Source of the DNA: Georgenia sp.
GTDB lineage: Bacteria > Actinomycetota > Actinomycetes > Actinomycetales > Actinomycetaceae
DNA: 11,279 nt
NCBI GenBank assembly: GCA_027322565.1
Contig: DAHVRG010000139.1
Span: 1 to 11,279 of the forward strand
Direction: 5' to 3'
Position numbers and translations under genes: made by a program. Positions 2,191 through 11,279 of the stretch are shown piece by piece. The notes under the pieces are model-generated. The model was given only the letters and a program-made list of their open reading frames with translations, did not search any database and had not been told where the DNA came from. Numbering within the stretch: the stretch's first letter is position 1; every line of letters begins with the position of its first letter.

Positions 2191-2280
2191 CCTCTCCCGA
2201 GTGCGCGGCCCGGTGGTGCGTGCCACGCTCGGCGGAGCGGCACCGCCCTCCTGGTGGCGCCCCGAGTGGAAGGACCGGGT
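2191..2280 (+). other. Intergenic stretch before the small membrane protein gene
   Basis: These 90 bases separate the EEP gene from the small membrane protein gene. The only clear signal is GGAAGGA at 2268-2274, a strong Shine-Dalgarno sequence 6 bases before the ATG at 2281. Short imperfect inverted repeats occur but none makes a convincing terminator, and no TANNNT box at a suitable distance was found. Co-transcription with msrB and the EEP gene is possible. Confidence 0.5.
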
Positions 2281-2547
2281 ATGGAGATCATCGGCCTCAT
2301 CATCTTCGGCGCCGTCATCGGAGCGCTCGCACGCCTCTTCATGAAGGGGGAGCAGAACCTCGGGATCCTCTGGACGATCATCCTCGGGATCGCCGGTGCC
2401 CTCGTCGGCTACTGGCTGGCCGGCATCCTCGGCGTGGAGGACACCCGCGGCATCGACTGGATCCGGTGGGCCATCTCCGTCGTGGCTGCCATCGTCTTCA
2501 TCGGCATCTACCTGGGCATCACCAACAGGGGCAGCGCCCGCCGCTGA
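2281..2547 (+). CDS. GlsB/YeaQ/YmgE-type small membrane protein
   Basis: The product is 88 residues and consists mostly of three hydrophobic segments (about 2-20, 29-50 and 61-80) linked by short charged turns. MEIIGLIIFGAVIGALARLF, the short KGEQNLG turn and TIILGIAGALVGYWLAGIL match the GlsB/YeaQ/YmgE family, also called transglycosylase-associated proteins. Members are inner-membrane proteins often linked to general stress responses; their molecular role is not settled and the transglycosylase name is not evidence of enzyme activity. The start is fixed by GGAAGGA 6 bases upstream of the ATG. An in-frame ATG at 2254 would add nine residues of poor quality and place the ribosome site inside the gene. 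A strong stem-loop follows directly. Confidence 0.88.
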   Translation: MEIIGLIIFGAVIGALARLFMKGEQNLGILWTIILGIAGALVGYWLAGILGVEDTRGIDWIRWAISVVAAIVFIGIYLGITNRGSARR

Positions 2548-2663: not shown

Positions 2664-4217
2664 ATGGTGCGCAGGAGGTGGGTGGCGCCGCTGCTGACAG
2701 CCGCGGTGCTCGCCGTCGTCGGGTGCGGGTCCGCCGAGACCCCATCCGGGCCCGCCCGGACACCGGGCCCCGCGGCCACCACGGCCGTGCCGCCGCCGGC
2801 CGTCGCCCCCAAGCCGGTGGACGTCGCCGTCGTCGTCGAGGGGATGCCCGCCGACGTGCGGGTCGGGCCCATGGTCAACGTCGACGAGGACCACGCCGTC
2901 CTCGTGCTCGACGCCGTGATCCCGGACGACCCTCCGCTGCAGGCCAGCGCCCGGCCGTGGGAGAACGTCCCGGCGACGGAGCGCCACCCCTACGGCGCGC
3001 TCATGGGCCGCCTGCCCGTCCTCGACCTCGGCGCCGGCACGGTCGAGGAGCCGCTCGACGTCGGCGGTTTCACGGCGAGCAGCTGGTACCGCCGCGACGA
3101 GGGGCGCCATGTCGGCTACGCGGCCTACGGCCGGCAGGAGGCGGACACCGTCGCCGTCCTCGTACCCCACGGCGACGTCGTCGAGGTCCCCGTCGTCGAC
3201 CTCGCCCACCTCACCGCCGAGGGTGGCGCGCGCGACCCGAAGGCGGTGCTGGAGGCAGGGCAGTGGCTGCTCGAGGCCGACCCGGCGCTCGGCCGGGAGC
3301 GTGGGCAGCTGACCGTGCAGCGCATGGCGCTGGAGGTGGTCGCCCGTGACCACGCCGGCACCGTGGACGTCGCCGCCTCCGCCGAGGGCACCGTGGTCCG
3401 CATCACCGCGCAGGCCCTGTTCGAGGACGGCTCGGCGGAGCCGGCCGCCGGTTCCGACGCCGCGCTCGACGCCGTCGTCGCCCAGCTGGAGGAGAGGCGT
3501 TTCGAGGAGGTCCGAGTCGCCGTCCCGTCCGGGCACGACCTACCGGCGGACACCGCCCACGAGCGCGGTGAGGCCGTGCTGGAGCGGCTGCACCGGCTCA
3601 CCGACCTCAGCGGGCTCAGCGGCGCCGAGGTCGAGGCGATCCCGGGCGGAGGTCGGAGCGCTGCCGGCCCGGAGCGGATCGAGGTCCACCTCCGGGGGGC
3701 GGCCGGCGGCACCGTGCCCCGCATCGCGCCGTGGGGCGGGCCGGAGCTGCCCGAGCCGACCGGACCGGTCGTCGCGGCGCCCGGTCCGGCCGAGGTGGAG
3801 CTCGAGGAGGACGCGCCGGTGGCGGTCGCGCTGGAGGAGGTGCGCGAGGTCGGTGACCTCCTCGTCGGGCGGGTCCTCGTCACCAACACCGGTGCCGAGC
3901 GGATCCGCTCGGTCGAGGAGTACTTCACGCGCGGACGTGCCGACGACGCGCGCGAGGGGTCCCGCTTCATGCGGCGGACCGACGCCTTCGCGCTCACGGT
4001 GGCGGGCACTCGGTACTTCCCGGTGGAGTACCCGGTGTGGGACCGGTACATGGCCCTGGCACCGCCGCAGCGGCAGGACCTCGCCCCCGGTGACACCTAC
4101 GTCGCGACGGTGGTCTGGCCCCGGGTCCCGGGAATGTCCGTCGTGCTCGACGTCGCAGGCCGGGAGGGCGGGTACCGCACGCCGGACGTGCGGGTCACCG
4201 ACGTCCCGGTGCGGTAG
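2664..4217 (+). CDS. Lipoprotein with a degenerate OmpA-like domain
   Basis: The 517-residue product begins with a lipoprotein signal: MVRRRW, a hydrophobic stretch and a lipobox VVGC ending at Cys21, so it should be lipid-anchored on the outer face of the membrane. A Pro/Ala-rich linker covers residues 28-50. Residues 51-230 have no family I recognise. Residues about 232-347 resemble an OmpA-like fold: ITAQALFEDGSAE (strand and turn), ALDAVVAQLEERRFEEVRVAVPSGHD (helix, strand and GHxD-like turn), AHERGEAVLERL (like SERRAEAV) and RIEVHLRG. The peptidoglycan-binding Asp and Arg may be present as Asp292 and Arg301, but the motif is loose. Residues 375-517 look like an all-beta domain (LVGRVLVTNTGAER). 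The start follows GGAGG at 2647-2651. The gene converges on the DUF2207 triplet with only 4 bases between stops. Lipoprotein call firm; domain call tentative; function unknown. Confidence 0.85.
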   Translation: MVRRRWVAPLLTAAVLAVVGCGSAETPSGPARTPGPAATTAVPPPAVAPKPVDVAVVVEGMPADVRVGPMVNVDEDHAVLVLDAVIPDDPPLQASARPWENVPATERHPYGALMGRLPVLDLGAGTVEEPLDVGGFTASSWYRRDEGRHVGYAAYGRQEADTVAVLVPHGDVVEVPVVDLAHLTAEGGARDPKAVLEAGQWLLEADPALGRERGQLTVQRMALEVVARDHAGTVDVAASAEGTVVRITAQALFEDGSAEPAAGSDAALDAVVAQLEERRFEEVRVAVPSGHDLPADTAHERGEAVLERLHRLTDLSGLSGAEVEAIPGGGRSAAGPERIEVHLRGAAGGTVPRIAPWGGPELPEPTGPVVAAPGPAEVELEEDAPVAVALEEVREVGDLLVGRVLVTNTGAERIRSVEEYFTRGRADDAREGSRFMRRTDAFALTVAGTRYFPVEYPVWDRYMALAPPQRQDLAPGDTYVATVVWPRVPGMSVVLDVAGREGGYRTPDVRVTDVPVR

Positions 4218-4221
4218 CGGC

Positions 4222-6180
4222 TCAGCGGCCTCCGCCGCCTCCACCACCCCCACCCCCGCCGGAGAAGCCACCGCCGCCGGACGAGCCGGAGCCGCCCGAG
4301 GAGCCCGGTGTGGCGGACAGCGTGGTGCTCGCCGTCGTCGCGAACCCGCAGACCGAGCGGCCGAGGTCGGTGAAGCCCGGCGTGCCCAGGCCGGAGGAGT
4401 CCGCGCCGGTGTACCAGTCGGGGCGGGCCGGCTCGACCCCCTGCGCCTCGAGCTCGGCGAAGAGCCGCGCCCACCGCTCGGCGACGCCGTAGACGATGGC
4501 GTACGGCAGGTAGCGGGAGAAGACGTCCTCCCCCTCCTCGAAGCGCAGCTGGTGCGCCTCGGCGGTGGCGAGGTACCGGCGGAAGCTGCGGGACTGCTCG
4601 TACAGGGCACGGCCCTCAGCCGTCCGCTGCCGGGCGGCCCGCCGCGTCGCGGCCGCGACCCCGTACCCGGCGGCCGCGACGAGGGCGCCGACGGCCGCGA
4701 GGAAGAGCTCGGCGAGCAGGCCCGCCGACCGCGCGGAGTGGAACACGAAGTACCCGAGGACGACGGCGCCGACGACGCCGGAGACCGTGAACCTGCGACG
4801 CCTCCCCAGCGGGACGGGACGGCGGAACAGCCCGCGTGCGTCGAGTTCCGCGGCGAGCCCGCGGCGTGCCTCCTCCGTCGTCCGGTGGAGGTCGTGGCGC
4901 AGCTGGGAGAGCCGGACCGTACGGCGTGCCCCGAAGATCCCGGTGAGCAGGGTGTGCTCGTCCGGGCTGAGCTCGTCCCGCCGCCGGGCCGTGCGTGAGC
5001 TGTCCACGAGCGTCCAGTCGGTCGGTCGCCCGCGTCGGTCCCTGCTCACCTCCCGGATCCGCAGGTGCCCGCGGACCGCGAGGTCGACGATCGTGGCGGT
5101 GACGTGGACGGTCGTGACCCGGGCGTCGTGGAGCGCACCGACGAGGCCGGGGCGCAGCCCGTCCGGCGGCGTGAAGCGGACCGCGACCACCGGCGGCCGA
5201 CCCACCCGCTCGATTCGCGCCGGGTTCCCCGGGGCGGCCAGGACCCCCGGCGGCAGGTGCGCGAAACGCAGGTCCCGACCGCGCAGCACGCGGAGGGCGC
5301 CGTATGCCAGCAGTCCGGCGAGGGCGAGAGCAGCCAGTGGCGCGGCGTGTTCCCAGACGAAGCCCGCAGCCGTCGCCGCCGGGCCGCTGCCCGCGGCGAA
5401 CGGTGCCGGGCGGTCGGTGAGGATCGGCGCGATCTCGCCGAACGTCCCGGGCGGGAAGGCGGCCAGCACCGTCATCCCGGACCCTGGGTCGAGGTCGGTG
5501 CTCGACCAGGCCACCCCTCCGCCGTCCACCTGTCGGGTCTCGCACGGCGTGGTCGAGCCGTGGGGCCCCGTGTAGCAGGCATGCTCGACGACGCCGGTCG
5601 GCCCCCGCACCGTGACCGTCGCCCAGTCGATGGGCACCGCCCAGTCGTGGCCGGTGGCGTTCCAGTAGAGCTCGTCCCGGTCCGCCACCTCGGGGTCGTC
5701 CCGGATGGCGTTGAGGGCGCCGGAGACGCTGTAGGTCAGCCGGTAGACCTGGAGCCCGGTCCGGCGGTCGTCCGAGCCGTCCGGCGCCCCGACGTCCACC
5801 CGGACACGCGCGCCCTCGTCGCGGACCCAGACACCCGTGGGCGCACCCGTCGGGCTCGCCGCCGCGAAGTCGCCGTACTCGTAGACCCGCACCTTGGACC
5901 GGTCCGGCTCATGGTCGAACCGGGAGTCGAGCACCCGGGTGAGGCCGAGGCCGTGCCGGGCGCCGAAGTCCCAGTGGTAGGTCTCGGTGACCGCCAGCGT
6001 GCCGTCCGGCCGGACGTCGATCCGGATCGACAGCTTGCGGATGACGTCGGAGTCCGCTGCGGACGCAGGGAGCGGGAGCAGGAGGACGGCGGCCAGCGCG
6101 AGGCCTGCGACGGCGAGCACCCGGACGGCGCGGGTGAGCGGAGCAGCCGCGGGGGGACGCGCCGCCCGCTCAGCGGCCAC
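4222..6180 (-). CDS. DUF2207 family membrane protein, copy A (last of three)
   Basis: The 652-residue product is the third gene of a minus-strand tandem triplet. A signal peptide occupies residues 1-41 (VLAVAGLALAAVLLLPLPASA, cleavage before ADSD). The extracytoplasmic part (42-274) carries the DUF2207 hallmarks DVRPDGTLAVTETYHWDFG, RVDVGAPDGSDDRRTG and DELYWNATGHDW, plus the cysteine pair Cys202/Cys213. Membrane segments lie at about 278-296, 465-481 and 487-510. Between them is a cytoplasmic section with HVTATIVDLAVRGHLRI that looks winged-helix-like. The C-terminal block FEEGEDVFSRYLPYAIVYGVAERW (541-570, quoted in part: EDVFSRYLPYAIVYG) leads to a Ser/Gly-rich tail ending in FSG(11)R. I chose the GTG at 6180, which overlaps copy B by 11 bases and has GGAGG 5 bases upstream; no homologous later start exists because the equivalent codon is CTC. 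It is the most diverged copy, with an extra Cys611 and an insertion near 594-602. Biochemical role unknown. Confidence 0.88.
   Translation of the reverse strand: MAAERAARPPAAAPLTRAVRVLAVAGLALAAVLLLPLPASAADSDVIRKLSIRIDVRPDGTLAVTETYHWDFGARHGLGLTRVLDSRFDHEPDRSKVRVYEYGDFAAASPTGAPTGVWVRDEGARVRVDVGAPDGSDDRRTGLQVYRLTYSVSGALNAIRDDPEVADRDELYWNATGHDWAVPIDWATVTVRGPTGVVEHACYTGPHGSTTPCETRQVDGGGVAWSSTDLDPGSGMTVLAAFPPGTFGEIAPILTDRPAPFAAGSGPAATAAGFVWEHAAPLAALALAGLLAYGALRVLRGRDLRFAHLPPGVLAAPGNPARIERVGRPPVVAVRFTPPDGLRPGLVGALHDARVTTVHVTATIVDLAVRGHLRIREVSRDRRGRPTDWTLVDSSRTARRRDELSPDEHTLLTGIFGARRTVRLSQLRHDLHRTTEEARRGLAAELDARGLFRRPVPLGRRRRFTVSGVVGAVVLGYFVFHSARSAGLLAELFLAAVGALVAAAGYGVAAATRRAARQRTAEGRALYEQSRSFRRYLATAEAHQLRFEEGEDVFSRYLPYAIVYGVAERWARLFAELEAQGVEPARPDWYTGADSSGLGTPGFTDLGRSVCGFATTASTTLSATPGSSGGSGSSGGGGFSGGGGGGGGGGGR
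5640..5677 (-). repeat. 38-bp block identical in all three DUF2207 genes (copy A)
   Basis: This block encodes most of DELYWNATGHDW and is identical, including third codon positions, at 5640-5677, 7591-7628 and 9582-9619. It is part of the paralogous gene repeat rather than a separate element. Confidence 0.8.
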
Positions 6181-8089
6181 CGCCGCCTCCGCCGCCCCCG
6201 CCGCCGCCGGAGAACCCGCCCCCGCCGCTGCTCGACCCGGATCCGCCGGAGGAGCCCGGTGTGGCGGACAGCGAGCTGCTCGCCGACGTGGTGAACCCCG
6301 ACAGCGCCCGCCCGAGGTCGGTGAAGCTGCCGCCGCCGAAGGTCGCCGTGCCGACGTACCACGTCGGTCGCTGGACATGGACACCCTGCGCCTCGAGCTC
6401 GGCGAAGATCGCGGCCCAGCGCTCGGCGACCCCATAGACGATGGCGTACGGCAGATAGCGGGAGAAGATGTCCTGCCCCTCCTCGAAGCGCAGCTGGTGC
6501 GCCTCCGCCGTCGTGAGGTAGCGCTCGAACCCGCGGGACTGCTCGTGGTAGGCCCGGCCCGCTGGGGTGCGCCGCCAGCGGGTCTTCGCCGTCCACGCCA
6601 CGGCGACCCCGAACGCGACGAAGAACCCGACGGCGATGAGCAGGAGGAAGTTCGCCGAGTCCGGCAGGGTGTTCAGCGTCATCCCGAAGAGCATCGGGAA
6701 GCCGAGGAGCAGGAGCAGGGTGAACATCACGCGGCCCACCCGGTATGCCCGCGACGGCTTGAGCGGCTGGGTGAAGAGCCGGCGCCGGTCGACCGTGTCC
6801 TCGAGCTCGCGCCGGGCGGCGCGCGTCGTCCGGTAGAAGTGGTTGCGCAGCTCGGAGAGCTTCACCTGGCGGCGGCCGGGGAACATCCCGGCCAGCAGCG
6901 TCTGCTCGTACCGGGTGAGCCGGTCGTGCGGGGCGTTCTCGGGGGTGGCGACGAACAGCCAGTCGTCCGGGCGGCCGTCGCGCCCGGTCCGGGCCTCGTG
7001 GATGCGCAGGTACCCCCGCACCGCGAGGTCGATGACCGTGGCGGTGACGTGCTTGTCCGCGACCTCCTTCTCGTCCAGGGCGCCAACCTCGGCCGGGCGC
7101 AGGTGGTCCGGCGGCGTGAAGCGCACCGCGACGGGCGGCTCGCTGCGCAGCTGCGCGACCTGGACCGTGGACCCCGGCGCGGGCAGCAGGCCCGGGGTCA
7201 GCCCGACGTAGTGGAGGTCCCGACCGCGGCGTACCCGCCACCGGCCGAACAGGACCGGCACGGCCAGTCCCAGCGGCGTGAGCCAGAACCAGTGGCGCCA
7301 GACGAAGTCCGCGGTGGTCGCGGTCCAGCTCTCGTCCTCGTCGCTGAAGGGGGAGGTCTGCTTCTCCTCGAGGATGGGAGCGGTCCGCGTGAAGGTACCC
7401 GGTGGGAAGGCCGCCATGACCGTCAGCCCGGACCCGGGCGGCAGGTCGCGTCCGCTCGCGACCACGCGGCTGCCGTCGGCGGAGAGCGTGTCGCACCCGG
7501 CCGTCGAGCCGTGCTCGCCCCGGTAGCAGGCGTGGTCGACGACGTCGACGGGGCCGGTCACCGTGACGGTCGCCTCCGCGATGGGGACCTCCCAGTCGTG
7601 GCCGGTGGCGTTCCAGTAGAGCTCGTCCTGGTCCGGGACGTTCGGGTGGTTGCGGATGGCGTTGAGGGCGCCGTCGACGGTGTAACTCAGCTGGTAGACC
7701 TGCTGCCCGGTGCGCCGGTCGTCCGAGCCGTCGGGAGCGCCGACGTCGACGCGCACCTGGGCGCCGTCGTCGTACACCCACACCCCGGCCGGGGCGCCGC
7801 TCGGGCTGGCGGCGGAGAAGCCGCGGTAGCGGTAGATGCGGTCCGTGCCCGGCTCGGGCGGGTAGTCGAAGCGTGCGTCGAGGCGGCGGGTGAGCCCCAG
7901 ACCCTCCCGGCTGCCGAAGTTCCAGTGGTACGTCTCGGTGACCTCGAGGGTGCCCTCCGGCCGGATGTCGATCGCGATGTCCAGCCGGTCGATGACGTCT
8001 GTGCTCGCCGCGGCGGCGGAGGAGGGCAGCAGGAGCAGCGGGGCGAAGGCCAGCACGAGGGCGGTGAGGGCGCGGGACAGTCGGTACAC
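6170..8089 (-). CDS. DUF2207 family membrane protein, copy B (middle)
   Basis: The product is 639 residues from the GTG at 8089. This start gives MYRLSRALTALVLAFAPLLLLPSSAAAA, a normal signal peptide that lines up residue for residue with copy C. A GTG at 8149 would add 20 residues (659 in all) and is the alternative. Extracytoplasmic signatures are IRPEGTLEVTETYHWNFG, RVDVGAPDGSDDRRTG and DELYWNATGHDW, with cysteines 188 and 199. Membrane segments lie near 266-283, 454-470 and 480-499. The cytoplasmic section has HVTATVIDLAVRGYLRI, and the C-terminal block includes FEEGQDIFSRYLPYAIVYGV before a Ser/Gly tail ending in FSG(11)R. It lies 65 bases after copy C. TAACGT 8 bases before the GTG suggests an additional leaderless start. 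Its glycine-tail codons carry the ribosome site of copy A. Role unknown; the E. coli relative YciQ is also uncharacterised. Confidence 0.87.
   Translation of the reverse strand: MYRLSRALTALVLAFAPLLLLPSSAAAASTDVIDRLDIAIDIRPEGTLEVTETYHWNFGSREGLGLTRRLDARFDYPPEPGTDRIYRYRGFSAASPSGAPAGVWVYDDGAQVRVDVGAPDGSDDRRTGQQVYQLSYTVDGALNAIRNHPNVPDQDELYWNATGHDWEVPIAEATVTVTGPVDVVDHACYRGEHGSTAGCDTLSADGSRVVASGRDLPPGSGLTVMAAFPPGTFTRTAPILEEKQTSPFSDEDESWTATTADFVWRHWFWLTPLGLAVPVLFGRWRVRRGRDLHYVGLTPGLLPAPGSTVQVAQLRSEPPVAVRFTPPDHLRPAEVGALDEKEVADKHVTATVIDLAVRGYLRIHEARTGRDGRPDDWLFVATPENAPHDRLTRYEQTLLAGMFPGRRQVKLSELRNHFYRTTRAARRELEDTVDRRRLFTQPLKPSRAYRVGRVMFTLLLLLGFPMLFGMTLNTLPDSANFLLLIAVGFFVAFGVAVAWTAKTRWRRTPAGRAYHEQSRGFERYLTTAEAHQLRFEEGQDIFSRYLPYAIVYGVAERWAAIFAELEAQGVHVQRPTWYVGTATFGGGSFTDLGRALSGFTTSASSSLSATPGSSGGSGSSSGGGGFSGGGGGGGGGGGR
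6186..6190 (-). promoter_or_regulatory. Shine-Dalgarno for copy A, inside copy B's glycine tail
   Basis: On the minus strand GGAGG (from the Gly codons GGA GGC of copy B) stands 5 bases before the GTG at 6180. This is the best ribosome site in the triplet, and it decides the start of copy A. Translation of copy B should pass directly through it, so the two genes are probably translationally coupled. Confidence 0.6.
7591..7641 (-). repeat. 51-bp block identical between copies B and C (copy B)
   Basis: Positions 7591-7641 are identical to 9582-9632; the first 38 bases are also identical to copy A. The encoded segment is around residues 149-165 of copy B (VPDQDELYWNATGHDW). Confidence 0.8.
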
Positions 8090-8097
8090 GCCCCGCA

Positions 8098-8103
8098 ACG
8101 TTA
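8098..8103 (-). promoter_or_regulatory. Candidate -10 box (TAACGT) before copy B
   Basis: TAACGT, within GCGATAACGTTG, lies 8 bases before the GTG at 8089 and in the 65-base gap between copies C and B. There is no ribosome site at that GTG. The arrangement fits an internal leaderless promoter, allowing copy B and A expression without copy C. No clear -35 is visible. Confidence 0.35.
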
Positions 8104-8154
8104 TCGCGCCCCGCGACGCATATGGCAGGCCCAGGGCGAGCCGGCGCACGGGGT

Positions 8155-10077
8155 TCAGCGGCCGCCGCCTCCGCCGCCGCCACCTCCCCCGCCGGAGAAG
8201 CCGCCACCACCACTCCGGGAGCCCGAGCTGCCCGAGGAACCCGGCGTCGAGGACATCGTGCTGCCGGCGGTCGAGGCGAAGCTCGACACTGCGCGCCCGA
8301 GGTCACGGAACGAGCCGCTGTGGAAGGCTCGGGTGCCGACGTACCACGTGGGCCGATGCACCGGGCCGCCCTGGGCCTCGAGCTGGGCGAAGATCTCCGT
8401 CCACCGGTCGGCGACGTCATAGACGATCGCGTACGGGAGGTAGCGGGAGAAGATGTCTGCCCCCTCCTCGAAGCGCAGCTGCTCGGCCTCGGCGGTGGAC
8501 AGGTAGCGCTCGAACCCCCGGGACTGCTCGTGCAGCGCCCGGCCCAGCGGGGTGCGCTGCCGGGAGGCCCGGCTGGTCACCGCGGCGGCGAGGACGAAGG
8601 CGCCGGTGAGCGCGAGGAGGACGAGGAAGAGGAACACGGTCGACAGGGGCGTCGAGGCGCCGGTCGAGCTGGTGAAGTAGCTGACGAAGATGATGATGCC
8701 GAAGACCAGCGGGAAGAAGACCCGGGTGGAGACGCCGCCCGACAGCGGCCGGGAGAACAGCTGTGTCAACCCCGCACCCAGCTGGCGGCGCGCGACCCGC
8801 ATGGTGTGGTGGAACCGGTTGCGCAGCTGCGAGAGCCAGACCTGCCGCCGGCCCCCGAACAGCGCCCCGAGCAGCGTCTGTTCGTAGTCGCGCAGCGAAC
8901 CACCGGTCGCCTCCTGGGGGGTCGCCACGAGGAGCCAGTCCTTCGGTCGGCCGAAGACGGTGGTGGTCTCGGACTCGTGGATCCGGAGGTGCCCGCGGAC
9001 GGCGAGGTCGACGAGCGTCGCGGAGATGTGCTTGGTGGACGCGCGCTTGTCGTCGAGTGCCCCCACCTCACCGGGGCGCAGCCGGTCCGGTGGGGTGAAG
9101 CGCACGGCGACGGCCGGCTTGCCCGTGACCCGGGCGACCCGCGGTGTGCTCCCCGGCGGCGGCAGCACCCCGGGCGGGAGGTCCGCGAACTGGAGGTCGC
9201 GGCCCTGGCGCACGCGCCGGACGCCGTAGGCCACCGGCAGCGCGAGCAGGAGGGGGCCGACCCACGCGGCGTTGCTCCAGATGAAGTCCGCAGCGGCGGC
9301 GGTGGCGGTATAGCGCTCGTCGGGCCGGTCGAACGGGGAGGTGGAGGAGGGGGCGTCGCGAAGGATGGGGGAGATGTCACCGAAGGTGCCGGCAGGGAAG
9401 GCGGCCATGATGGTGACGCCCGAGCCGGCCGGGAGCCGGCCGCTCGCCGCGCTCACCTGCCCGCCCGCGGCGTCGAGGGTGTCGCACTCGGCGGTCGAGC
9501 CGTGGCGGCCGGCGTAGCAGGCGTGGTCGACGACGTCGGCGGGGCCGGTGACGGTGACGGTGACGTGCTCGATCGGGATGTCCCAGTCGTGGCCGGTGGC
9601 GTTCCAGTAGAGCTCGTCCTGGTCCGGGACGTCGGGGTCGTTGCGGATCGCGTTGAGCGCGCCGTCGACGGTGTACCGCAGCACGTAGGTCTGGCGGCCG
9701 GTGCGCCGGTCGTCCGAGCCGTCCGGGGCACCGACGTCGACGCGCACCCGCGCGCCCTCGTCGCGGGTCCACACCCCGGCCGGCGCCCCGCTCGGGCTGG
9801 ACGCGGCGAAGTTCCCGTACTCGTAGACGCGGACCTGGTCCGGCTGGGGCGGGTAGTCGAAACGTGCGTCGAGCACTCGCGTCAGGCCCAGCCCGCGGCG
9901 CGAGCCGAAGTCCCAGTCGTAGGTCTCGGTCACCTCCAGCGTCCCGTCGGGCCGGATGTCGATCGCGATGTCGAGGCGGCGGATGACGTCGTTGCTCGCC
10001 GCGGTGGCGGCAGAGGGGAGCAGCAGCGCGGCCACGGCGAGGGCAAGGACCGCAAGGGCACGTGGTAGACGGGTCAC
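8155..10077 (-). CDS. DUF2207 family membrane protein, copy C (first of three)
   Basis: The 640-residue product is the promoter-proximal paralogue. The GTG at 10077 gives a signal peptide MTRLPRALAVLALAVAALLL to about residue 27 (SAATA|ASND). The extracytoplasmic domain (28-265) shows IRPDGTLEVTETYDWDFG, RVRVDVGAPDGSDDRRTG (110-127) and DELYWNATGHDW (154-165), with Cys187 and Cys198. Membrane segments are about 267-287, 452-468 and 478-500, giving an outside N-domain, a cytoplasmic middle region (290-450, with ISATLVDLAVRGHLRIHE) and a cytoplasmic C-terminus. The last part holds ERYLSTAEAEQLRFEEGADI, then FSRYLPYAIVYDVADRW, then a Ser/Gly tail ending in FSG(11)R. There is no Shine-Dalgarno site; TAGCGT lies 7 bases before the GTG, so the mRNA is probably leaderless. 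Open frame continues upstream to 11271, but only as antisense of the helicase gene. Function unknown. Confidence 0.9.
   Translation of the reverse strand: MTRLPRALAVLALAVAALLLPSAATAASNDVIRRLDIAIDIRPDGTLEVTETYDWDFGSRRGLGLTRVLDARFDYPPQPDQVRVYEYGNFAASSPSGAPAGVWTRDEGARVRVDVGAPDGSDDRRTGRQTYVLRYTVDGALNAIRNDPDVPDQDELYWNATGHDWDIPIEHVTVTVTGPADVVDHACYAGRHGSTAECDTLDAAGGQVSAASGRLPAGSGVTIMAAFPAGTFGDISPILRDAPSSTSPFDRPDERYTATAAAADFIWSNAAWVGPLLLALPVAYGVRRVRQGRDLQFADLPPGVLPPPGSTPRVARVTGKPAVAVRFTPPDRLRPGEVGALDDKRASTKHISATLVDLAVRGHLRIHESETTTVFGRPKDWLLVATPQEATGGSLRDYEQTLLGALFGGRRQVWLSQLRNRFHHTMRVARRQLGAGLTQLFSRPLSGGVSTRVFFPLVFGIIIFVSYFTSSTGASTPLSTVFLFLVLLALTGAFVLAAAVTSRASRQRTPLGRALHEQSRGFERYLSTAEAEQLRFEEGADIFSRYLPYAIVYDVADRWTEIFAQLEAQGGPVHRPTWYVGTRAFHSGSFRDLGRAVSSFASTAGSTMSSTPGSSGSSGSRSGGGGFSGGGGGGGGGGGR
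9582..9632 (-). repeat. 51-bp block identical between copies B and C (copy C)
   Basis: Counterpart of 7591-7641. Perfect identity over 51 bases contrasts with the many differences elsewhere between the genes. Confidence 0.8.
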
Positions 10078-10079
10078 GC

Positions 10080-10095
10080 CGGGGACGCTACCCCG
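10080..10095 (-). promoter_or_regulatory. TAGCGT -10 box in a CGGGG/CCCCG inverted repeat, copy C start
   Basis: On the minus strand TAGCGT (10090-10085) is followed by 7 bases and the GTG of copy C, the pattern expected for a leaderless transcript. The box sits in the loop of the inverted repeat CGGGG-TAGCGT-CCCCG at 10095-10080, which may also be a protein-binding site. No Shine-Dalgarno sequence is present. Confidence 0.45.
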
Positions 10096-10183
10096 AGCCC
10101 GCGGGCGGCCGGCCAGACCCGTCCGGCGACCGCGTCGCACGGTGAGGTGGCCCACCGGTCCCGCACGACGTCGCCGCACACGG

Positions 10184-10189
10184 TAGGGT
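10184..10189 (+). promoter_or_regulatory. Candidate -10 box (TAGGGT) upstream of the helicase
   Basis: TAGGGT is followed by 7 bases and a GTG at 10197, so transcription would start near 10196-10197. This leaves a leader of about 106 bases before the helicase TTG, or a leaderless 45-codon reading frame (10197-10334) that overlaps the helicase start. No good -35 is seen. Confidence 0.45.
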
Positions 10190-10302
10190 CGTCGGCGTGG
10201 GCCCGCGTTCGGCGAGCCCGGCGTCGTCGAGTTCGAGTGCAGCAACCGCTGCCGGTTCCTGTACGGCGAACTCCGACCCTTCATCACGCCCGAAAGGCCA
10301 CC

Positions 10303-11279
10303 TTGACCTCCTTCGCTTCGTTCGACCTTCCTGACGCCGTCGTCCGGCACCTGACCGACACCGGCATCACCACCCCCTTCCCCATCCAGGCGGCCACGCT
10401 GCCGGACACCCTGCGCGGCCGGGACGTGCTCGGCCGCGGCCGCACCGGCTCCGGCAAGACGCTCGCCTTCTCCCTTCCTCTTGTCACCCGGCTCGCCGGC
10501 CGGCGGCGGGTGCCCAACCGTCCGCGCGGCCTCGTCCTCGTCCCGACGCGTGAGCTCGCCAACCAGGTCGACGCCGTCGTCGCCCCGCTCGCCCGCTCGC
10601 TCGGGATGACGACGACGACGATCTTCGGCGGCGTCAGCCAGGGTCGGCAGGTCAGCGCCCTGCGCGCCGGTGTCGACATCGTCATCGCCTGCCCCGGCCG
10701 CCTGGAGGACCTTCTCGGCCAGGGTGTGCTCACCCTCGACGACGTCGAGGTCACCGTCCTCGACGAGGCCGACCACATGGCCGACCTCGGCTTCCTGCCG
10801 GGCGTCAGGCGCATCATGGACCGGACCCCGAGCACCGGCCAGCGGATGCTCTTCTCCGCGACGCTTGACAACGGGGTCGACGTCCTCGTCAAGCGCTACC
10901 TCGACCGGCCGCTGCACCACGCCGTCGACAGCGCGGAGTCGCCCGTCGCGGCGATGACGCACCACGTGCTCGCCGTCTCGGGGGCCGAGGACAAGAAGCG
11001 CGTCGTCCAGGAGCTCGCCGCCGGTGCGTCCAAGCGGCTGCTCTTCACCCGCACCAAGCACCAGGCCAAGCGCCTGGCCAAGCAGCTGACGACGGCCGGG
11101 ATCCCCGCCGTCGACCTCCACGGCAACCTCACCCAGCCGGCCCGCGAGCGGAACCTCGCCGCGTTCTCCTCCGGCGCCGTCCGGGTGCTCGTGGCCACCG
11201 ACATCGCGGCCCGCGGGATCCACGTGGACGACGTCGAGCTCGTCGTCCACGTCGACCCGCCCGCCGAGCACAAGGCCTA
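10303..11279 (+). CDS. DEAD-box ATP-dependent RNA helicase, 3' end cut by window
   Basis: 325 complete codons are present before the window ends. The protein unwinds RNA duplexes with ATP, probably in ribosome assembly, RNA decay or cold adaptation. Motifs are intact: Q motif ending in PFPIQ (Gln29), motif I GRGRTGSGKT (44-53), Ia PTRELA (81-86), II DEAD (154-157), III SAT (185-187), IV LLFTRT (246-251) and V ATDIAARGIHVDD (298-310). Motif VI and any C-terminal extension lie outside. The overall pattern is closest to RhlE-like proteins, but I do not assign a symbol. The start is TTG at 10303 with GAAAGG 5 bases upstream, giving MTSFASFDLP; no ATG or GTG fits nearby. The TTG overlaps the TGA of an upstream frame as TTGA. 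The gene is divergent from the DUF2207 triplet, with no evident functional link. Confidence 0.93.
   Translation, partial: MTSFASFDLPDAVVRHLTDTGITTPFPIQAATLPDTLRGRDVLGRGRTGSGKTLAFSLPLVTRLAGRRRVPNRPRGLVLVPTRELANQVDAVVAPLARSLGMTTTTIFGGVSQGRQVSALRAGVDIVIACPGRLEDLLGQGVLTLDDVEVTVLDEADHMADLGFLPGVRRIMDRTPSTGQRMLFSATLDNGVDVLVKRYLDRPLHHAVDSAESPVAAMTHHVLAVSGAEDKKRVVQELAAGASKRLLFTRTKHQAKRLAKQLTTAGIPAVDLHGNLTQPARERNLAAFSSGAVRVLVATDIAARGIHVDDVELVVHVDPPAEHKA

What the first reader, a model, noticed from the sequence alone, without database searches (positions are those of the whole stretch)
4222..10077. Three complete DUF2207 paralogues in tandem
Three 639-652 residue genes of one uncharacterised membrane family sit head to tail in one apparent operon, all intact, each with signal peptide, extracytoplasmic domain, three later membrane segments and glycine tail. 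Family members usually occur singly as far as I know. Retaining three full copies suggests different ligands or a hetero-oligomer rather than recent redundancy: copy A has clearly diverged.
Basis: partly seen in the sequence, partly recalled or inferred. Interest (0 to 1): 0.7.

Follow-up and report, generated by a model that had tools for sequence, protein, structure and literature searches.

The report
Old tandem triplication of envelope gene
An uncultured actinobacterium carries three old, intact, side-by-side copies of a poorly understood membrane-protein gene that close cultured cousins keep as a single copy at the same spot, which looks like ordinary gene duplication followed by divergence and not a new three-part machine.

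The parts
8155..10077 (-). DUF2207 copy C (640 aa, GTG start): slow-evolving copy, beside the helicase as the single gene of relatives is
6170..8089 (-). DUF2207 copy B (639 aa, GTG start), with its own promoter-like box; P0009 and P0011 are orthologues at 81-82%
4222..6180 (-). DUF2207 copy A (652 aa, GTG start): fastest copy; P0018 is an orthologue at 72%
10085..10090 (-). TAGCGT box 7 nt before the GTG of C (leaderless-type -10 candidate); same box and spacing in L030, L031 and L033
8098..8103 (-). TAACGT box 8 nt before the GTG of B (leaderless-type -10 candidate)
6170..6180 (-). 11-nt overlap of the A start (GTG 6180-6178) with the end of B; no TANNNT box seen just upstream of A
8158..8253 (-). 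glycine tail of C (residues 609-640), ending in a glycine run and R as in A and B
2664..4217 (+). 517-aa lipoprotein-like gene convergent with A; not at this locus in L030, L031, L033 and no match in five same-genus genomes
2254..2547 (+). Transgly_assoc (PF04226) gene: flank shared with the single-copy loci
10147..11277 (+). DEAD-box helicase (frame runs off the contig): flank shared with the single-copy loci

Best explanation
One ancestral DUF2207 gene between the DEAD helicase and the Transgly_assoc gene was duplicated in tandem, in place, in a Georgenia-like sublineage, and the copies have been kept since before some uncultured lineages split (synteny and tree shown; a single round of events inferred). 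C stayed close to the ancestral type; B has a promoter-like box of the same kind; A became the distal, fast-evolving copy whose start overlaps the end of B (shown). Each protein has an outer beta-sandwich domain, one membrane crossing, a cytosolic domain, a two-helix membrane hairpin and a cytosolic helical part with a glycine tail (modelled for C; topology inferred). The likely role, as for the studied member of S. mutans, is an envelope or stress-tolerance membrane protein acting with LemA (inferred from one published mutant and from co-occurrence). The copies most likely split expression and cytosolic output between them while sensing the same thing outside (inferred).
For: Same flanks with one DUF2207 gene in L030, L031, L033. 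Root-to-tip lengths A 0.62, B 0.47, C 0.26 (from the branches). Near-saturated four-fold sites and no long shared tract (38-52 nt). TAGCGT or TAACGT 7-8 nt before GTG in C, B and three relatives; 4 of 591 ATG/GTG triplets on both strands of the window have a TANNNT box 6-9 nt upstream. A-line changes at 179 invariant columns: 7 of 11 cytosolic, 0 of 11 in the ectodomain, Fisher p 0.0014. Independent tandem pairs in G017 and G566. LemA in 21 of 24 DUF2207-positive against 8 of 35 DUF2207-negative genomes. S. mutans SMU.243 mutant (PMC10457818, abstract and passages).
Against: The placement of C is unresolved (C with the seven other proteins p 0.166), so one round of events in one lineage is not proven. 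The cytosolic bias of A rests on two sequences of one lineage and on a region picked after looking; A alone and P0018 alone each also have 2 ectodomain changes. The independent G566 t1 line shows it only weakly (4 cytosolic and 4 ectodomain of 9) and both G017 lines are ectodomain-biased. The LemA test does not correct for kinship, counts one sub-cut-off match (G041) as present, and LemA is on another contig in the window's genome (C75). The stress function comes from a distant organism.
Confidence: 0.72

Rival explanations
1. The three proteins are dedicated subunits of one hetero-oligomer in the membrane, each copy kept because the complex needs it.
For: All three are intact and long retained; another lineage may hold two adjacent copies (P0005 and P0011 list the same longest contig length); A overlaps B.
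Against: One copy suffices in close relatives at the same locus, and 148 of 163 positive genomes of the order list one match. C has no clear clade. C and B may be separately transcribed. Complexes could not be modelled here.
Confidence: 0.1
2. The copies are receptors for different extracellular ligands.
For: Ectodomains still differ at 25-32% of positions; ectodomain-biased change is seen in the independent G017 pair.
Against: The ectodomain is better conserved than the cytosolic domain, and the segment profile resembles that of other Georgenia-group pairs of equal distance; changes shared by A and its orthologue at invariant sites spare the ectodomain (0 of 11, with 76 of 179 columns there).
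Confidence: 0.12
3. Recent redundancy kept for gene dosage.
For: Tandem arrangement; copy number varies among relatives.
Against: 58-65% identity, near-saturated synonymous sites, orthologues of A and B in other lineages.
Confidence: 0.05
4. Assembly artefact of a 57%-complete MAG.
For: The window is a whole contig of a fragmented MAG.
Against: L032 matches at 99.93% across the B-A junction; C and B proteins list the same longer contig length, 37370.
Confidence: 0.01

Closest known systems
DUF2207 family (PF09972 + PF20990); single genes of G. satyanarayanai and Oceanitalea
   Same: Both domains over cut-off, similar length, glycine tail, same locus
   Different: Three copies in tandem here; one at that locus in L030, L031, L033
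SMU.243 of Streptococcus mutans (DUF2207; PMC10457818, abstract and passages seen)
   Same: Same family; large outer N-part and inner C-part with a Gly/Ser stretch, per that paper
   Different: Single gene upstream of uppP in a distant organism; its role may not carry over
TIGR04222 (near_uncomplex) membrane proteins
   Same: Partial match over the cytosolic domain of C and B
   Different: 29.2 and 31.7 bits, below the cut-off of 43; A has no match up to E 0.1
Ribophorin I / Ost1 of eukaryotic oligosaccharyltransferase (fold only)
   Different: About 10% identity and no sequence match; the C-terminal part of the model has no convincing PDB match
M1 aminopeptidase N-terminal domain (fold only)
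   Different: No peptidase family among the Pfam matches of the three copies

Membership tests
DUF2207 (PF09972/PF20990) | N-terminal domain over gathering score | tested here: met
   92.0 (C), 83.7 (B), 79.3 (A) bits against 24.4
DUF2207 (PF09972/PF20990) | C-terminal domain over gathering score | tested here: met
   107.1, 128.5, 120.4 bits against 33
TIGR04222 | Score over curated cut-off | tested here: not met
   29.2 (C) and 31.7 (B) bits against 43; A none up to E 0.1
   A and B yes, within the Georgenia group; C unresolved
   not seen in any of the other 212 genomes of the family (at most five candidates scored per genome), but the contigs of P0005, P0009, P0011 and P0018 could not be fetched
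   only single chains can be folded
Ribophorin I / Ost1 | Sequence-profile match | tested here: not met
   ectodomains of C and B (A not given) list no ribophorin family up to E 10, where HMMER's filters drop most weak matches; all 20 PDB-sequence matches fall on the tail end of the profile (541-610)
Ribophorin I / Ost1 | Fold of a luminal beta-sandwich domain | tested here: met
   [not shown]
Ribophorin I / Ost1 | Cytosolic domain like that of Ost1 | tested here: inconclusive
   no convincing match of the C-terminal part

The most novel reading that the evidence does not exclude
DUF2207 proteins are distant bacterial relatives of ribophorin I/Ost1: an M1-aminopeptidase-like sandwich outside, a membrane crossing and a cytosolic domain, working near exported or membrane proteins; the triplet would be a lineage that expanded such a factor and varied its cytosolic side.
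Probability: 0.06. Interest if true: 0.75.

Novelty: new member of a known kind. Interest (0 to 1): 0.3.

Why it matters
The array is a natural set of three long-kept versions of a widespread but little studied envelope protein, beside close relatives with one copy, so copy swaps could show which part of the protein carries function. The fold resemblance of the ectodomain to ribophorin I is a structural lead that none of the literature searches made here turned up. Otherwise this is ordinary family expansion.

Tried and rejected

Rows left out of counts. The quick tree held 68 rows. The cytosolic model used 30 of the 32 fragments (those of L050 and L022 dropped). The segment comparison used 15 hand-picked pairs. 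The viral fold library was not searched.

Full report
What is there. Three uninterrupted DUF2207 genes lie on the minus strand: C 10077-8155, B 8089-6170, A 6180-4222. All three pass the Pfam cut-offs for both family domains. Pairwise protein identity is 58.3% (A-B), 60.8% (A-C) and 65.0% (B-C). Record L032 (MAG DX1.bin3) is 99.93% identical over 5493 nt across part of B, A, the lipoprotein and Transgly_assoc. The C-B junction has only the support that P0001 and P0010 list the same longest contig length (37370).

The locus in relatives. In G. satyanarayanai (L030, L033) and Oceanitalea stevensii (L031) the order is DEAD helicase, one DUF2207, Transgly_assoc, endonuclease/phosphatase-family gene, MsrB, GNAT: the same neighbours that flank the triplet. 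Of the five other same-genus genomes held, G002, G003 and G005 have one gene of the window's type and G001 and G004 none; G001, G002, G003 and G005 also have, or have instead, a distant DUF2207 relative of 39-40% identity elsewhere. In the family, 33 of 213 genomes match copy B at E <= 0.001 (at most five candidates scored per genome). Six other rows list three or more matches (G017, G477, G481, G499, G514, G564), but these combine distant paralogues, different contigs or pieces of one gene; none shows three full genes side by side in that table.

Age and tree. Four-fold degenerate sites in shared codons are 48.6-55.4% identical, against 43.5-45.2% expected from composition alone, and the longest exact shared stretch is 38-52 nt in a conserved motif. 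In the careful tree of 46 rows A pairs with P0018 and B with P0009 and P0011 (each 100/100); these and P0005 form a group (97/96), C joins with 89/76, and the sister group is seven other Georgenia-group proteins (92/98). Copy number at the locus was seen only for those of G. satyanarayanai and Oceanitalea. AU tests (four sets): A, B and C of the window alone is rejected (p 3.7e-48); C with P0005 p 0.034; C with the seven other proteins is not rejected (p 0.166); A line plus B line is already in the best tree at 90/45. P0005 and P0011 list the same longest contig length (15704), which suggests, without proving it, a second lineage with nearby copies. Root-to-tip lengths from the seven-row node are A 0.62, B 0.47, C 0.26, P0005 0.27.

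Is the array unusual? In the order, 163 of 396 genomes match PF09972; by my count of the table 148 list one match and 15 (the window's own included) list two or more. These are lower bounds: the PF09972 search listed one gene each in G002, G003 and G005, where a protein search found two, and G001 matched but not. Neighbouring matches within about 5 kb can be read from listed coordinates in seven genomes of family f3 (G100, G127, G140, G181, G304, G322, G383), some in short frames (323 aa in G127), and in the window's own family in G017 and G566; G481 has fragmentary neighbouring matches. With my narrower profile the f3 regions showed mostly one frame each. In the tree the G566 and G017 copies fall outside the Georgenia group. 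With PF20990 over the phylum, 146 of 296 genomes match, 36 of them (own included, my count) with two or more listed matches, some of which may be pieces of one gene.

Expression signals. TAGCGT stands 7 nt before the GTG of C and, with the same spacing, in L030, L031 and L033; TAACGT stands 8 nt before the GTG of B. Of 591 ATG/GTG triplets on both strands of the window, 4 have a TANNNT box 6-9 nt upstream (C and B fit the test and so should be among the 4). Reading these as leaderless promoters is my inference from recalled knowledge of actinobacteria. No such box stands before A; its GTG start overlaps the end of B by 11 nt.

Where the copies differ. Identity by segment in A-B, A-C and B-C resembles, by eye and without a test, that of other Georgenia-group pairs of equal distance: for A-C, ectodomain 69, cytosolic 57, hairpin 28, last helices 77; for H159-MJ173, 67, 57, 23, 77 (15 hand-picked pairs). 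The last-helix segment and the tail are more conserved than the ectodomain. At 179 columns invariant in 14 other Georgenia-group sequences, A and its orthologue both deviate at 11: 7 cytosolic, 3 in the last helices, 1 in the tail, 0 of 76 in the ectodomain (Fisher for cytosolic p 0.0014, region picked after looking). A by itself deviates at 14 (2 in the ectodomain), P0018 at 19 (2), B at 8 (3), C at 4 (0). Left out in turn, the three most divergent of the 14 change in the ectodomain at 7 of 15, 6 of 11 and 8 of 18 sites; the other eleven change at 0-6 sites each. The three B-line proteins share 5 deviations, 1 in the ectodomain. In independent pairs the pattern is mixed: the G566 t1 line has 4 cytosolic and 4 ectodomain changes of 9, with positions 396 and 398 also hit in A; the t2 line 3 ectodomain and 2 cytosolic of 7; both G017 lines are ectodomain-biased (6 of 9 and 11 of 15). 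So a cytosolic split is a lead for A, not a rule.

Function. In S. mutans, loss of the DUF2207 gene SMU.243 lowered acid and peroxide tolerance and biofilm formation, with no significant change in sensitivity to the envelope antimicrobials tested (PMC10457818, abstract and passages). Among 59 genomes, LemA is found in 21 of 24 with DUF2207 and 8 of 35 without (one of these, G041, below the cut-off; Fisher p 9.5e-7, not corrected for kinship). LemA lies directly beside DUF2207 in G006, G030, G038 and G054, and about 47-48 kb away on the same contig in G002, G003 and G005 (coordinates); in the window's genome it is on another contig. A paper also reports highly related DUF2207-LemA pairs in other bacteria (PMC12631010, passages). 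A LemA-linked envelope-stress role is therefore the best bet; the molecular activity remains inferred.

Verdict. The array is nevertheless an in-place tandem expansion of a known family, found in one lineage, with parallels elsewhere, and there is no evidence for three ligands or an obligate three-part assembly.

Noticed in passing
[not shown]
   Followed up: partly
C-termini of copies A, B, C and of the homologues: The last residue is W or R in 114 of 115 homologues longer than 550 aa (70 W, 44 R, 1 L), so the end of the glycine tail looks constrained and not mere low complexity.
   Followed up: partly
window 2664-4217 (+): A 517-aa lipoprotein-like gene stands between copy A and Transgly_assoc, where L030, L031 and L033 have none; no match in five same-genus genomes. 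In the family 21 of 213 genomes match (own included), at 34% or less over long alignments and up to 48% over short pieces.
   Followed up: partly
   Followed up: no
L101 (G383:C1:1414500-1434000): A genome of family f3 lists five PF09972 matches, two of them about 5 kb apart: possibly a larger DUF2207 cluster than the one studied here; my own profile found one frame in that stretch.
   Followed up: no
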